A DNA stretch of 64,000 bases from Cystobasidiopsis lactophilus (Eukaryota > Basidiomycota > Agaricostilbomycetes > Agaricostilbales > Chionosphaeraceae), in NCBI GenBank assembly GCA_001599975.1, contig BCIO01000002.1, forward strand, positions 2,677,883-2,741,882. Reading direction: 5' to 3'. The position numbers were made by a program, and so were the translations under genes. The notes beneath the pieces are model-generated. The model had not been told where the DNA came from and did no database searches. It worked only from the letters and a program-made list of their open reading frames with translations. Shown here piece after piece: positions 53,556 to 61,209 of the stretch; within the stretch, counting starts at the first letter, position 1, and every line of letters starts with the position of its first letter.

Positions 53556-54188
53556 TCATCCTTCGACCATGTCGGCCGTCGGAGGGGCGGTGGAGACCGG
53601 CGCCCTTTGCTTGTTGTCAACCCCTCGGCCCTGCGGATTCGTCTGACATCAGCCACGTCAGCTATGTCAGTAGAGATGCACCACCGACAATGGCCTCCTC
53701 GGCGTCCTTTGGCGTGAAGCCGCCTTCGTTGATGGCCTTGACCCTCCGCTTGTGCAATTTGGTCTTGAGATGGCCCTTCAAAGTGTTGGCATCGATGAAG
53801 TGCCGATCACAGGCCACACACGGGTGCTCTCCCCCGCCAGACAGGTCGAGCGGGTCCGGCTCCCAGCCAACTTCAAGCCGCTGCCTCTTGCCGCCATTGT
53901 CTGCCAGATCCCCAATCACCTGGTCGATGTCCCGGCTATACCGCTCTGCTCAAGATGTCATTCTGAGTTTATCCAAGAGTCAATCCAAGGCCAAGAGCAC
54001 TGACTGGTCCTACAAAGTTGTCGAGCAATGAGCATCGAAAGAAATTCTAATGCGGGAAATGAAGAGCTCACTTGTGATCCTTTGCCTGCCCTTTGGCTGA
54101 TCCATGCTGGTTCGCCAATCGTATCAGGACGCTGCTGCTGCAATGCTGGCGGGCGACTCACAGTTCTAGACCGTCTCGTTCGCGTCAT
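53556..54188 (-). CDS. BUD20: Bud20/ZNF593-type C2H2 zinc-finger ribosome-export factor
   Basis: Proposed exons 54162-54188, 54072-54106, 54001-54009 (9 nt), 53689-53935, 53556-53630; 130 residues, frame closed. The zinc finger is CVACDRHFIDANTLKGHLKT then KLHKRRVK, followed by GFTPKDAEEAIGRGVDN, the conserved Bud20/ZNF593 signature. The N terminus is basic (MTRTRRSRT), as in the family. Known: Bud20 shuttles with pre-60S particles and aids their nuclear export. The finger and C terminus are secure. The N-terminal joints, including the 9-nt exon, are inferred from splice signals and phase. Confidence 0.88.
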
Positions 54189-54651: not shown

Positions 54652-56559
54652 ATGCGCTTGACCGCCGCTGCTGTTGCCATTGCGACAGCTGGCCTGTTCG
54701 CTTCGGCCGCCGCCCAAGATGTGCCCATGGAGACCGAGGCCGCCAGCGCCGACATGGGCACCTTGATGGACCGCATCCTCGACCTCAACGCCGCCGGCAT
54801 CATCCCCGCCGCCATCCCTCCCGAGCTGCAGGCCCAAGCTTCCTCCGCGGCAGCTGCATCGGCCTCTGTCAACCTGGAAGGCCTCTCCAATGGCACCTTC
54901 AAACCAGCTGGGGCAAACCTTAAAGTCAATCTGCCCAACGTGGTCTCTTCCGTCGTGCCAGAGGTCCTATGTGCGCTTCTCTTCACTTTTGATCGCAGCA
55001 TGGGACATGGAAAGCTCACAGGCTGAACACAGCCACTGCCGAAGCCGCACTCACTCAGGTCGTCACCAACGCAGCCCAGCTGCCTGTCTTCACCGGCCTG
55101 CTCGGCGAGACACCCAAGTTCGTGCCCCACCCACCAGTCTACACCGACGCCCCCATGCACAAGCGCGGCGCCAACAGCCACAGGCGCCACGTCGAGCTCA
55201 AGCGCATGTATGAGGATGGCCAGGACGCCAAGATGGCCAAGCGGGATGTGGATTTGTCCCAGAACGCCACCGTGGTGGATCCGGTCTGTAAGTGTAACGC
55301 AAAGCTCCTGATCTGACCAAAAAGCTGACATCTACCTCCCCACAGTGAACGCCGCCGGCAATACTACACAGCACACTCGTGCCGCCCATCATAACCACCT
55401 TCTGTCTTCGGCCAAGCCCGCTGCTCAAACTCCTAATGTGGTCATCAAGCTTCCTGTGGTCACTGACATCCTGCCTCAAGCTGCTGCAACCGTCGATGCT
55501 GCCGTCCAGCAAGTCAATTCCATGGCGAACCACGCTACCCTCAGCTTCGCCAACATCATTGGCATGGGCAAGCCCACCCCGACTTTCATCCCGCACCCCC
55601 CTGTTGTGCCCACCTCTAAGGTTGTGAAGCGCATGTTCGAAGAAGAGGGTGAGTGGATATCTTGCACGAAGTCTTTTCCCCAATAAGCTCATTGTGTTTG
55701 CTTGTTGTCAGATGAGGCCGTGGAAAAGCGAGCTGGCCACTTCCTGGACCGAGTGGGCAGCGCGAACGCTGAGCCAACCGAGGAGTCGGAGGACATCGCC
55801 AAGCGCTCGCGCAACTCCCGGGTCAACAACAAGGCCAAAGCATCGGCCGCCGCCGCCGTGGCTGCCCCAGTCGCTGTGGTCGCCCCACTCGCTGCCGTTG
55901 TTGCCCCAGTCGTTTCCAACGTTGTGGATGCGGCCACCACCCCTCTCGCTGCCGTCCCAACGGTACCTGTTGTTGTCGACTCCCTCACGCAAGCGGCCGC
56001 CGCCACCGTCGCCTCTGTTGTGGCTGACGCACCCGTCGTCGTTGCGCCTGTGGTCGACGTCGTCTCTTCTGTAACCGACCAGGCCGCCCACACCGCTGCT
56101 TCCCAGGTCGCTGCCGTCGTGGCCGCAGTAACCACCCAGTACGACTTGGCCATCCTGGCCGGCAACTCGGCCGCTCAACGAGCTGCGGCGCTTCTTGGAG
56201 GCTTTCACGGGCCGCCCACACCTACCTTCACTCCCAAAGTACCCACCTATGCCAAGCTGGCGCGCAAGGCCGCCCGTCGTCTCGATCAAGAGCAGCCCGC
56301 CGTGGCTAAGCGCCAGCACAACAAGCCCAAGGTCACCAGCAACGTTGTCAAGGTCGTCGTTCCGGTTGTGGAGACGGCCGCTGCAGTTGTGGCGGAGGCT
56401 CCTGCGGCGGTCGAGACAGTGGCAGAGGCGGCGGCCAGTGTCGCGGCGCCTGTGGCCCAAGTCATCACTTCCAAGGCCGTCAACTTGGGAGGTCTCCTCG
56501 GCTTTGGCAAGCCCACTCCCACCTTCGTCCCTACCTTTCCCACTTATGCTAAGGAGTAA
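54652..56559 (+). CDS. Secreted repeat precursor with Kex2-type dibasic sites
   Basis: Exons 54652-54963, 55059-55287, 55346-55648, 55712-56559; 563 residues, frame closed (the first intron, 95 nt, is the least certain). A signal peptide (MRLTAAAVAIATAGLFASAAA) starts the protein. Four copies of a motif follow: ETPKFVPHPPVY (about 124-132), KPTPTFIPHPPV (about 256-267), PPTPTFTPKVPTYAK (about 457-471) and KPTPTFVPTFPTYAK at the C terminus. Each copy is preceded by LLG or IIG and a long Ala/Val-rich helix-like segment, and the first three are followed by dibasic sites (KR or RR) and a short acidic spacer ending KR. Inference: Kex2 processing in the Golgi releases several related peptides, as in fungal KEP precursors such as Ustilago Rep1. 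Fate of the peptides (wall, surface or signalling) is unknown. Confidence 0.78.
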
Positions 56560-56770: not shown

Positions 56771-58777
56771 TTAAGTACAAATGCTCACAAAGAATGAGGT
56801 GAGGAGAACAAGCACGGCTGCGAAAGTCGCAAACAGGAATACGTGCCGGAGGGCAACAGCAAACGCCGCCTTTGCTGCGGCCTGTTGAGCCGGCCTTAGC
56901 TCATATAGAGTCGCAATTGAATGTCGAAGGCGATAAATTAGCTGCAGCAGGGTCAAGCTCAGACGAAGTCGAGACCCCAAAAGCCGTCCACTCACCTTTT
57001 CAGACGTAAAGCGCTTCCGAAGTTCAGCGGCGAGTCCCAGCTGGAAAATGGTTGACGATACTGCGACGCCTGTGACCTGCCCTAGGCCTCTCCACACAAA
57101 CACAAAGCCGGCAGCCGTTGGTGCCTGTGCTGGTTCCACCGAAGCCATTATTGAAACTGCCAAACATGTCCCTTCAATCTAAAACCGACCGCTCGACACT
57201 CAAGCTCACCTTGAGTCGATGTGAGCAAAGCACTGAATCCAAAGCCCATGGGTACAACAGCGAACCACAGAAGCCAACTGGGCGAGGCTGGCGAAAGGTG
57301 AGCAATGATGGACACTAACACAACACTCTGTTGAGTAAGGACGCCAGAGGAATCGGTAAGAGAGAAGAGGGCTGACTGGCTATGACTGGGCCAGTACAGG
57401 CCAAGACCGTCCACCATTTATACCTCCCGGTGATTTTGAGCAGAATTCCCATGAACGGTGAGCCAAGTATCATAGCCAGCTGTTCCAAAATTAAAGACTG
57501 TAAAAGGTGGGAGGCTGTGCCGATCCTCACCGAGTTAGGTAGCAGATGAGCACCAGCTTCTGCCTCCGACTTGCCCATGACGACCTCGAGCAACCTGGAT
57601 TCAACATGAACACAGTCCCTCTCATTACCAAGCTTTGAGACCTACAGTGGTAAGAAGTACACCATAGAAAAGTTCACGACCGCGATGACACCCGAAATGA
57701 TGCCAACACACAAAGCTTGTCGCCGGCGAAGCAAACTAACGGGCAGCACAGGTTCTGCCGCGTAGAAAGCTTCCACACAGATGAAAGCCACAAGAGAGAC
57801 AATGGTGGTGGCAGAAAGCGTCGGGACCAGGATTCGCCGGAGATGAGATGGTGGCGAGTTGACGAAGCCAAGCAAGAACAAGAACGATCCAATCTGCGCT
57901 TGAGACAATCAGCTGTGTTCCAAGGACGAGAGAAACAGGGACCGACAGAGACGAGCATGGCAAAACTTCCCAGCAGGTCGATCCGTCCCAAAAGTTGGCG
58001 CAGAGACTTGTGCGTCGGCTTCGACGGCGGAATTGCAATGTAAGCAACCAGGGCATTCATGGCGATGAGCGGCAATTGGACTGCACTGCGAATGAGAAAC
58101 ACGTAAGATGCGCTCCCATAGGATCACTCACAACCAAAAGCCCATCGCCACCCGAACGAAGCTGTGATGGCGCCCCCGATAACGCCGCCCAAACCCATAC
58201 CGCCGGCGAATCCAAGGAAGAAAAGTCCTTGATACAAGGCGCGATCCTTCACCTCGAACATGTCCGCAATGATCACGGAAGCCACCGTGCCGCTCCCGCT
58301 TCCCATGCCAGCGATGAACCGCGCCACGGCAAACATGAGCATTGACCGAGCACCGGCACACATGGCCGTCCCAATTAAGAACAAGGTCGTTGCTTGCAGG
58401 AAGGCCCTTCTGCGGCCCAGCTGATCGCACAGTCGGCCGTAGAGTGGGTTGCCGCAGACAGAAGACCAGAGGAACGCAGTGCCGATCCAGCTGGTCTGCG
58501 AGAAGGCGTTGAATTCGCTGCTGATACTGAAGGGCGTGCTCAGCTATGCGTGAAGTACAAGCCAAGGCCCAGCGCACGTAGAAAGGACAGTGGCAACGAC
58601 AGTCAGGTCCAAAGTCGCCAGGAAGGCAGAGAATAATAGGAGCCAGACGATCAGCTGTTTCCTGCGTGGAGAAGCATTCCTGACGGCCTCCAAGTAATCG
58701 GGCTGTTCGTGTTGACCCAGCAGAGCCGTCGTTTCGGTGATCTCGCTCGAGCTCCCTCCGAGTCGTGCGGCACCCAT
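56771..58777 (-). CDS. MFS transporter, DHA2 (14-helix) type
   Basis: Nine exons: 58578-58777, 58132-58520, 57947-58080, 57646-57893, 57531-57594, 57387-57479, 57210-57327, 56996-57156, 56771-56941; 525 residues, frame closed. After a short polar N terminus comes LDLTVVATVLSTSEFN (helix 1), CDQLGRRRAF (signature loop), GMGSGSGTVASVIIADMF (helix 4) and GGVIGGAITASFGWRWAF (motif C region). Later helices include YFLPLLLEVVMGKS, as in fungal drug:H+ antiporter-2 and Vba-type vacuolar amino-acid permeases. Localisation (plasma membrane or vacuole) and substrate are not determinable. It diverges from the arylsulfatase gene with a 192-bp gap. Confidence 0.87.
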
Positions 58778-58969: not shown

Positions 58970-61209
58970 ATGCTCGTCTCGTTCTCTGCGGTCGCAATAG
59001 CGGCGTGTTGGTCCATCGCCGCGAATGCGGTAGCGCTTTCGTCGCCGGTGGCGAAGCACCCGAACATCGTTTTGATCATCACTGATGACCAGGATGTGCG
59101 GACGCTGGAAGAGCGGCGCCATCTGCCCAAAGTACACGATCATCTGATTGATGAAGGCACCCTATTTTCCAACTTCTTTTGTCAAGGTGATAGGGCTTGC
59201 TCGGTAGCCTGAAGCTGCTCCTCACCCGAACTGAAACAGTGTCGGTCTGCTGTCCATCGAGGGTGTCTCTACTGCGAACCCAGCTTGCACACAATCACAA
59301 CATCACCTTCGTCTCTGCTCCGTGGGGCGGCTATCCTCGTTACAACGAACTTGGCCATAATGGGCGGGCGCTCCCCGACCACTTACAGGCGGCCGGTTAC
59401 AAGTGCGTGCTTTCCCTTGGCCTTCGCGGCGCTGCTGAGCGATTGCTTCACAGCACCTACTATGTGAAAATTGCCATTTTTCAATGCCGGAAGTGATCTT
59501 TGACTGACCTTGCAAACTGCAAACTTCAGGTGGGTAAGCTCATGAACGAGCATTCGGTCGACAACTGCGAGTCTTTGCCTGTCACTGGCTTCAATGGCTC
59601 GGACTTTTTGGTCGATCCACATACTTGCAAGCCCTTGTCTCCCCGGTCCACTGAAAGGACAAGCTAACGGCATTCGGCAGATGATTACTGGAATCCTGCA
59701 TTCTCAACGAACAGCATGTGCTTTTGTCCAGTTGAGTGACACTTATGATCTGACTGGGTCTCGCAGATGGACCTGCCGAGCATCTTCCCGGCACTTACAG
59801 CACTGATGAAGTCAAGCGAAGGGCTTTGGGTCGCCTCGACGAGGCGTTTCAATCCGAAGACCCTTTCTTTGTCGGAATCGCACCAATTGCACCGCATTCG
59901 TGGCTGGACGCCATTCCGGAGGATCTTGGGCGTATTCGGATGGACATCCCGGCCTCGCATCCTCGCCACGCCAAAGACTTTCCAGCCGACCAGGCTCCTA
60001 GAGTACCTTCTTGGAATCAGCCTGGCGGTGTATCATGGGTGGCAACTCTGCCTGCGATGAACGACACCGTGCAAGGCTACGTGGACGATTTCTACCGCGG
60101 CCGGCTTCGAGCGCTTCAATCTGTCGACGAGCTTGTTGAAGAAGTCGTGCAGAAACTAGAACAGGCCGGAAAGCTGGACAGCACCTACATTTTCTACACG
60201 TCTGACAACGGCTATGCTCGTAGGTTCTTGACCTCTCTTTGGGAGCTTCTTTCTAAACCTGCTCACAAACAATCTCCAGTGGGAACGCATCGTCGCAATC
60301 CAGGCAAAACCCTGGCATTCGAAGAGGACATCCACGTCCCTTTGATCGTGCGCGGCCCCGGCGTCAAGAGAGGATACATCAACAGCGTGTCGTCTCACAA
60401 CATTGTTGACCTCTCTGCGACCATCTTGGACCTGGCTGGGGCGTCAACAACGTACACACATGATGGCACGCCCATTGCTTTGCAGAACGAGAAGGCCGAA
60501 GACGAATCAAGAAGCATCAATCTGGTGGAGTACTGGGTGCTCAGTGCGGAGGAAGGGCACTTTGGCGGACAGCTCCGCACCAACAACACCTACCGAAGCA
60601 TACGCGTGGGTCTTTTGTGTTCAGGGCCGTCTGCGTATGTGAGACTCTAAGCTGGTCGCTCCAGGTTCACGAGGAGCACCAAGACTTTAACCACACCTTT
60701 GTACTTGCCTTTCCCTTTTTTGGTCCTTGGTAGCCCTGACCCAGCACCAGAGCTACTCGGTGTGGTGCACCGGAGAGCGGGAGCTTTATCATCTCAGCAC
60801 AGACCCGTACCAACTGAACAACTTGCTTTCGCCGATCAACAAGCTCGCCCACCCATTCGCTTCCGTCCACGCTCAAGATGCAGATGGCGCCCCGCTCCTG
60901 TCCTCGATAGTTTCAAGGGTTGCTGACCGGCTCGACGCCCTCATCCTGGTCATGAAGAACTGCGTCGGCCGGCAGTGCACGCATCCGTTCGAGACGATCT
61001 TCCCACATCGGCTAGCCGCTGGAGGGCACATCACAACTCTCCGCCAGGCCATGAGCTCAAAGTTTGACGACTACTTCCAGAGCTTGCCGCGAGTTGGTTA
61101 CAGCGAATGCGCCCTCGGATATCAATCCCGCCTCGAAGCGCCCTTTTGGGATCCGAGTTACGCCTTTGGCGACAGCAACGCCCTCTTCAAGCTGCAAGGG
61201 GCGTTCTAG
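58970..61209 (+). CDS. Secreted arylsulfatase (ARS-1 type)
   Basis: Nine exons: 58970-59180, 59240-59402, 59454-59463 (10 nt), 59530-59626, 59681-59725, 59767-60219, 60280-60605, 60665-60700, 60745-61209; 601 residues, frame closed. A signal peptide is followed by PNIVLIITDDQD (metal ligands Asp39, Asp40) and the sulfatase signature CCPSR at 74-78, whose Cys74 would be converted to formylglycine. NTYYVGKLMNEHS, TGFNGSDFLVDP and FYTSDNGY follow, as in Neurospora ARS-1 relatives. Reaction: hydrolysis of aryl sulfate esters to scavenge sulfate outside the cell. The fourth intron begins gcaagccc (GC-AG), the fifth is only 41 nt. In other fungi this class is induced by sulfur limitation; not shown here. 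Confidence 0.92.

What the first reader, a model, noticed from the sequence alone, without database searches (positions are those of the whole stretch)
54652..56559. Four-copy Pro/Thr peptide precursor with Kex2-type sites
Seen: signal peptide; four copies of a PTPTFxPxxPxY-like motif, each led by LLG/IIG and an Ala/Val-rich stretch; KR or RR sites after the first three copies and after the short acidic spacers that follow. Known: fungal KEP precursors (for example Ustilago Rep1, alpha-factor-like precursors) are cut by Kex2 at such sites. Inference: a secreted peptide family made from one precursor, either surface-active or signalling. The motif itself is one I do not know from any described peptide.
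Basis: partly seen in the sequence, partly recalled or inferred. Interest (0 to 1): 0.82.

Follow-up and report, generated by a model that had tools for sequence, protein, structure and literature searches.

The report
Four-unit secreted fungal peptide precursor
This is a fungal gene for a secreted-looking protein that seems built to be cut into four similar alanine- and valine-rich pieces, each ending in much the same unusual proline-threonine tail; a second gene in the same genome carries one such piece, and what the pieces do is not known.

Summary
The gene (window 54652-56559, +) has four exons, a hydrophobic N-terminus, four copies of a PTPTFxPxxPTY-like tail and nine KR/RR sites. Seven KR, nine dibasic sites and four motifs were each unmatched in 20000 composition shuffles. 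The first intron is better placed at 54971-55032 than at 54964-55058: all introns are then phase 1 and the unit 1/unit 2 alignment score rises from 65 to 100. The protein is then 574 aa, without Cys or Trp. What repeats is larger: Ala/Val/Pro-rich body, PT tail, dibasic site, short mostly acidic spacer, dibasic site. Products would be 130, 110, 158 and 81 aa, not short peptides. The same genome has one shorter relative (235 aa, one tail) and a kexin gene with S8 and P domains. Three protein searches found no relative elsewhere, but they did not return this gene's own protein either, so the negative is weak. Best reading: a lineage-specific Kex2-processed repeat protein, probably surface-active or wall-associated like smut repellents; that role is inferred. 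New member of a known kind.

The parts
54652..56559 (+). whole gene, ATG to stop; four exons, 574 aa in the preferred model
54652..54970 (+). exon 1 (preferred model)
54652..54714 (+). hydrophobic N-terminus, residues 1-21, likely signal peptide (by eye)
54971..55032 (+). intron 1, 62 nt, phase 1 (preferred over 54964-55058)
55033..55287 (+). exon 2
55288..55345 (+). intron 2, 58 nt, GTAAGT...CCACAG, phase 1
55346..55648 (+). exon 3
55649..55711 (+). intron 3, 63 nt, GTGAGT...TGTCAG, phase 1
55712..56559 (+). exon 4 with stop
54715..55166 (+). unit 1, residues 22-151, 130 aa, ends KR (spans intron 1)
55098..55145 (+). motif copy 1, LLGETPKFVPHPPVYT
55167..55244 (+). spacer 1, GANSHRR HVELKR MYEDGQDAKMAKR
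55245..55632 (+). unit 2, residues 178-287, 110 aa, ends KR (spans intron 2)
55555..55611 (+). motif copy 2, IIGMGKPTPTFIPHPPVVP
55633..55806 (+). spacer 2, MFEEEDEAVEKR AGHFLDRVGSANAEPTEESEDIAKR (spans intron 3)
55807..56280 (+). unit 3, residues 325-482, 158 aa, ends RR
56191..56256 (+). motif copy 3, LLGGFHGPPTPTFTPKVPTYAK
56281..56313 (+). spacer 3, LDQEQPAVAKR
56314..56556 (+). unit 4, residues 494-574, 81 aa, C-terminal
56494..56556 (+). motif copy 4, LLGFGKPTPTFVPTFPTYAKE

Best explanation
A secreted Kex2-processed repeat precursor of a fungus, most likely a basidiomycete. Shown by sequence: a hydrophobic N-terminus, four repeated units with a conserved PT tail, and KR/RR on both sides of short spacers. 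Inferred: the protein enters the secretory pathway, kexin cuts after KR/RR, a carboxypeptidase trims the basic ends, the spacers are discarded, and four Ala/Val-rich units of about 80-160 aa are released. Inferred more weakly: the units act at the cell surface. The Ala/Val/Pro-rich bodies would assemble or coat the wall in the manner of smut repellents, and the Pro/Thr tail (possibly O-mannosylated; recalled, not tested) would be the exposed or anchoring end. The shorter relative would supply a single such unit. I put the cut-precursor part at about 0.75 and the surface role at about 0.4.
For: Open four-exon model and nine dibasic sites. Dibasic and motif counts unmatched in 20000 shuffles. 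Bodies of units 1 and 2 align beyond the tail (0 of 2000 shuffles), and of units 2 and 4 likewise (2 of 2000). Spacers 1 and 2 share the form KR-M[YF]E...KR. Relative at G000 C2:3809712-3810544 (-) with hydrophobic N-terminus and ...KPTPTFKPVFPTYAKR; BLASTP of its tail to unit 4 E 3.5e-6 in a two-sequence comparison. In the PTPTF.P core, copies 2, 3, 4 and the relative differ at 3-4 of 6 codons in all 6 pairs, always synonymously (columns chosen because conserved), so the copies are not recent DNA duplicates. Kexin gene with Peptidase_S8 and P domains. No Cys or Trp, so not a hydrophobin. Rep1 of Ustilago maydis is a precedent: Kex2-released amphipathic peptides that form surface fibrils (PMC4617103, passages seen).
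Against: No RNA, peptide or phenotype data. The amphipathic-helix signal is patchy: in 36-aa body windows the share of 2000 shuffles reaching the observed moment at 100 degrees was 0.087, 0.002, 0.145, 0.043 and 0.067 for units 1-4 and the relative, and for the best 18-aa stretch 0.083, 0.149, 0.135, 0.012 and 0.525. In differently cut bodies at 100 degrees it was 0 of 3000 for units 3 and 4, but 0.067, 0.117 and 0.094 for unit 1 (old intron), unit 2 and the relative (six angles tried). Units are longer than the 35-53 aa Rep1 peptides. The AlphaFold model of unit 4 is poor (mean pLDDT 55.7). In the relative, one KR and one RR are followed by Pro, which kexin dislikes (recalled). No relative outside this genome supports the pattern. 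The one basidiomycete study seen found no specific function for the KEP-derived peptides it examined (PMC9769878 passage).
Confidence: 0.45

Rival explanations
1. A peptide-signal precursor: the conserved LLGxGKPTPTFxPxxPTY segment is the mature short peptide, freed by Kex2 at its C side and by another protease before LLG.
For: The tail is the best conserved part (T, P, F, P, P invariant in 5 of 5 copies, plus one Ala of the body), is followed closely by KR/RR in copies 1-3 and recurs in the relative.
Against: No dibasic site directly precedes LLG/IIG in any of the four copies. Copies differ in the last third, and copy 2 lacks the Tyr. No fragment starts with a run of XA/XP dipeptides such as Ste13 removes.
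Confidence: 0.2
2. A host-directed secreted repeat effector, comparable in build to Ustilago Rsp1, Hum3 or Rsp3.
For: Secreted repeat proteins with Kex2 sites in a smut include Hum3 and Rsp1, whose double knock-out halts development in the plant (PMC4617103 passages).
Against: Species and lifestyle are unknown here; no expression data; Ala/Val-rich bodies and a Cys-free sequence do not point to it specifically.
Confidence: 0.12
3. An antimicrobial or membrane-active peptide precursor.
For: Basic heads on units 3 and 4 and helix-like Ala/Val bodies.
Confidence: 0.08
4. A dikaritin-type RiPP precursor whose tails are cyclised by UstYa proteins.
For: KEP-like build and a Tyr in 3 of 4 tails.
Against: UstYa (PF11807) was not found in the genome (but no control genome rang). 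0 of 42 neighbouring reading frames scanned matched UstYa or tyrosinase (not every frame was scanned). Umemura gives repeats of 13, 14 and 8 aa for ustiloxin, phomopsin and asperipin-2a (PMC7329392 passage).
Confidence: 0.03
5. A wall or surface protein that stays whole; the dibasic sites are incidental or cut only once as a pro-region.
For: No peptide data; the cut fragments are long.
Against: Seven KR against none of 20000 shuffles reaching that number, placed regularly on both sides of three spacers.
Confidence: 0.12

Closest known systems
Kex2-processed repeat proteins (KEPs) as a class (Le Marquer 2019, PMC6339444, passages; Umemura 2020, PMC7329392, passages and section 13)
   Same: Signal-like N-terminus, at least three imperfect repeats, KR/RR between them, kexin in the genome; possibly lineage-restricted sequence, which Umemura calls usual.
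   Different: Long units (81-158 aa) with a short shared tail rather than short near-identical repeats; spacers of their own between two dibasic sites; a separate single-unit gene.
Rep1 repellent precursor of Ustilago maydis
   Same: Secreted, Kex2 sites between imperfect repeats (PMC4617103 passages); hydrophobic units.
   Different: Rep1 has 12 repeats giving ten peptides of 35-53 aa and one of 228 aa; here four units of 81-158 aa. Sequence similarity was not tested: no Rep1 sequence was fetched.
Hum3 of Ustilago maydis
   Same: Imperfect repeats with Kex2 motifs.
   Different: Hum3 has 17 amphipathic repeats of 31-36 aa and a hydrophobin domain; here there is no Cys at all.
Ascomycete alpha-pheromone precursors
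   Same: Repeats set between KR sites.
   Different: No runs of Ste13 XA/XP dipeptides at fragment starts; no STE2 receptor found while STE3 was found (no control rang for STE2).

Membership tests
Kex2-processed repeat protein (KEP) | N-terminal signal peptide | tested here: inconclusive
   Hydrophobic n/h/c pattern seen in the translation; no SignalP run possible.
Kex2-processed repeat protein (KEP) | At least 3 repeats of at least 8 aa between KR/KK/RK/RR sites (Umemura, section 13 read) | tested here: met
   Four tail copies of 12 aa or more, each in a different KR/RR-bounded segment, the fourth C-terminal. Umemura's own repeat-scoring program was not run.
Kex2-processed repeat protein (KEP) | Repeated sequence not longer than 100 aa (Umemura) | tested here: inconclusive
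   The shared part is about 60-65 aa at most, but 3 of 4 whole segments exceed 100 aa.
Kex2-processed repeat protein (KEP) | At least four fragments after KR/RR cutting, at least three of them similar (Le Marquer, passages seen) | tested here: inconclusive
   Ten fragments, four with the tail; the FIMO similarity step of that pipeline was not run.
Kex2-processed repeat protein (KEP) | A kexin to do the cutting | tested here: met
   Peptidase_S8 plus P_proprotein in two overlapping frames, C4:868981-870871; activity not shown.
Rep1-type repellent | Processed units mostly of 35-53 aa (one of 228) | tested here: not met
   Units are 130, 110, 158 and 81 aa.
Rep1-type repellent | Amphipathic repeats | tested here: inconclusive
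   Helical moments exceed shuffles for some units only.
Rep1-type repellent | Surface-active amyloid-like fibrils on hyphae | not testable with these tools
   Needs purified peptides.
Rep1-type repellent | Sequence similarity to Rep1 | not tested
   No Rep1 sequence fetched; three database searches returned nothing at all.
Dikaritin RiPP precursor | UstYa (DUF3328) genes nearby | tested here: inconclusive
   0 of 42 neighbouring frames scanned matched, but not every frame was scanned and genes are split by introns; genome search negative without a ringing control.
Hydrophobin | Eight-Cys pattern (recalled; also named in the PMC2253510 abstract start) | tested here: not met
   No Cys in 574 aa.

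The most novel reading that the evidence does not exclude
An undescribed family of secreted fungal units, delivered four at a time by one kexin-cut precursor and singly by a second gene, in which the divergent Ala/Val-rich body is cargo and the conserved PTPTFxPxxPTY tail is a common address or assembly tag for the cell surface.
Probability: 0.25. Interest if true: 0.6.

Novelty: new member of a known kind. Interest (0 to 1): 0.4.

Why it matters
Kex2-processed repeat proteins are widespread in fungi and their functions are largely unknown (PMC9769878 abstract). This one offers a built-in comparison: four divergent bodies sharing one tail, plus a natural single-unit version in the same genome. 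If the tail proves to direct surface assembly, it would give a testable second case of repellent-like coating beside Rep1. If not, it remains one more KEP of unknown role.

Tried and rejected
Three searches of the protein database: full length (the 7994 candidates sharing most words scored), tail of the relative (one candidate) and the C-terminal 124 residues (6915 candidates). None gave a match, at E 0.001 in the first and E 10 in the other two. None of them returned this gene's own protein, so this organism's proteome is probably not held and absence is weak evidence. Pfam found no domain in the protein (E up to 0.1). A PDB profile search of the units gave one hit at E 0.98, an antibody chain, rejected. 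An AlphaFold model of unit 4 on four rows was too poor to search with. Family searches for HET, hydrophobin PF01185, STE2 and UstYa were negative; no control genome rang for these four. STE3 was found in this genome, which shows that a receptor gene of this kind can be seen. Alpha-pheromone, dikaritin and hydrophobin readings were set aside for the reasons given in the rivals, Closest known systems and the membership table. A PDB search with the uS11 frame, meant to help name the lineage, did not.

Unit 3/relative was not tried.

Full report
Observation. The window lies in a 22.1 Mb genome of 8 contigs; GC is 0.56 over the window. The gene runs from ATG 54652 to stop 56557-56559 on the + strand. 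Shuffling the mature sequence 20000 times never gave 7 KR, 9 dibasic sites or 4 motif matches; the motif expression was written with the copies in view.

Correction of intron 1. I listed the GT...AG choices with donors at 54880-55009 and acceptors up to 55109 that keep the frame open: 27 combinations. TAT|GTGCGC scores 5, the best in the list, shared by the four choices that use this donor. Of these, the one ending ACACAG at 55032 is 62 nt long, like the other two introns (58 and 63 nt), and makes all three introns phase 1. It adds 11 residues, VLSTAEAALTQ. They align with unit 2: the local alignment of unit 1 with unit 2 rises from 65 to 100, and for bodies without the tail from 33 (60 of 2000 shuffles reach it) to 57 (0 of 2000). 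I therefore prefer the 574-aa model. RNA would settle it.

Anatomy. Cutting after every KR/RR gives ten fragments. Four carry a tail: residues 22-151 (130 aa), 178-287 (110), 325-482 (158) and 494-574 (81). Between them lie GANSHRR, HVELKR and MYEDGQDAKMAKR; MFEEEDEAVEKR and AGHFLDRVGSANAEPTEESEDIAKR; and LDQEQPAVAKR. Spacers 1 and 2 share M[YF]E-acidic...KR. The tail is LLGxGKPTPTFxPxxPTY[AK]-like; T, P, F, P and P are invariant in 5 of 5 copies including the relative, as is one Ala of the body. Whole units against shuffles of one partner: unit 1/unit 2, unit 2/unit 4, unit 4/relative, unit 4/unit 3 and unit 2/relative 0 of 2000; unit 1/unit 4 0.002; unit 1/unit 3 0.0045; unit 1/relative 0.009; unit 2/unit 3 0.0095. 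Without the tail only unit 1/unit 2 (0), unit 2/unit 4 (0.001) and unit 3/unit 2 (0.0075) stand out of eight body pairs tried with the preferred model. So the tail is clearly shared by all units, the body clearly by units 1, 2 and 4 and less clearly by the others. The protein has no Cys and no Trp.

A second gene. The genome search with the whole protein gave the four exons of the gene itself and one other place, C2:3809745-3810017 (-), E 6.4e-5. A codon pattern for KPTPTFxP had three hits, copies 2 and 4 and this same place, against none for the pattern read backwards. Its gene model has three exons and 235 aa: MLSQYTSSPLAAFIILAAAARLSTA..., KR sites, and a single ...AALSFLTKPTPTFKPVFPTYAKR followed by a short basic end. 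One KR and one RR in it are followed by Pro. Searches with its tail and with unit 2 found no third gene; the search tool says its counts are lower bounds.

Machinery and setting. A kexin is present: Peptidase_S8 plus P_proprotein in two overlapping frames on C4. STE3 receptors are found at two places, one of them with stops inside the matched stretch, while STE2, HET, hydrophobin PF01185 and UstYa are not. Together this fits a basidiomycete, an inference only, since the last four had no ringing control. Neighbours look like housekeeping: of 42 neighbouring reading frames scanned, 10 matched a Pfam family, one of them (Helicase_C) only below its cut-off (not every frame was scanned). They include a zf-C2H2_jaz protein just upstream, an MFS transporter just downstream, a sulfatase, uS11, a phosphate transporter, UDP-glucose dehydrogenase, an alpha/beta hydrolase and a proteasome subunit. 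No sign of a RiPP cluster was seen in them.

Relatives elsewhere. None found in three searches. Since a full-length query did not retrieve the gene's own protein, this organism's proteome is probably not in that collection, and the result says little about close relatives. Of 8 papers with the letters PTPTF none is about a fungal peptide, judged from titles and abstract starts in the listing.

Function. The precursor reading rests on sequence; that the units are released is inferred. The surface-active reading rests on analogy: Rep1 and Hum3 of Ustilago maydis are repetitive and carry Kex2 sites, and Rep1 peptides form surface-active fibrils (PMC4617103, passages). The analogy is imperfect: units here are longer, and the amphipathic signal is patchy. 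A study of basidiomycete KEPs reported no specific function for the peptides it examined (PMC9769878, passage). [quoted passage not shown] The verdict is a new member of a known kind with an unusual tail, moderate interest.

Noticed in passing
   Followed up: yes
window 58124-58543 (-): Frame of an MFS transporter downstream, pointing towards the gene's 3' end (MFS_1 4.7e-27); frames at 56771-57178 and 57674-58123 on the same strand may belong to it but matched no family.
   Followed up: partly
window 59754-60650 (+): Sulfatase frame (PF00884, 1.1e-22).
   Followed up: no
window 53662-53919 (-): Small zf-C2H2_jaz protein, divergent neighbour upstream.
   Followed up: no
L025:3-3128 (+) and L025:3744-7019 (+): Two very long stop-free frames (1042 and 1092 aa) next to the relative's locus; the second has three zinc-knuckle matches, nature not worked out.
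   Followed up: no
G000 C4:1994434-1995499 (+) and C1:2329659-2330000 (+): Two STE3-type receptor loci; the second has two stops inside the matched stretch, intron or decay not decided.
   Followed up: no
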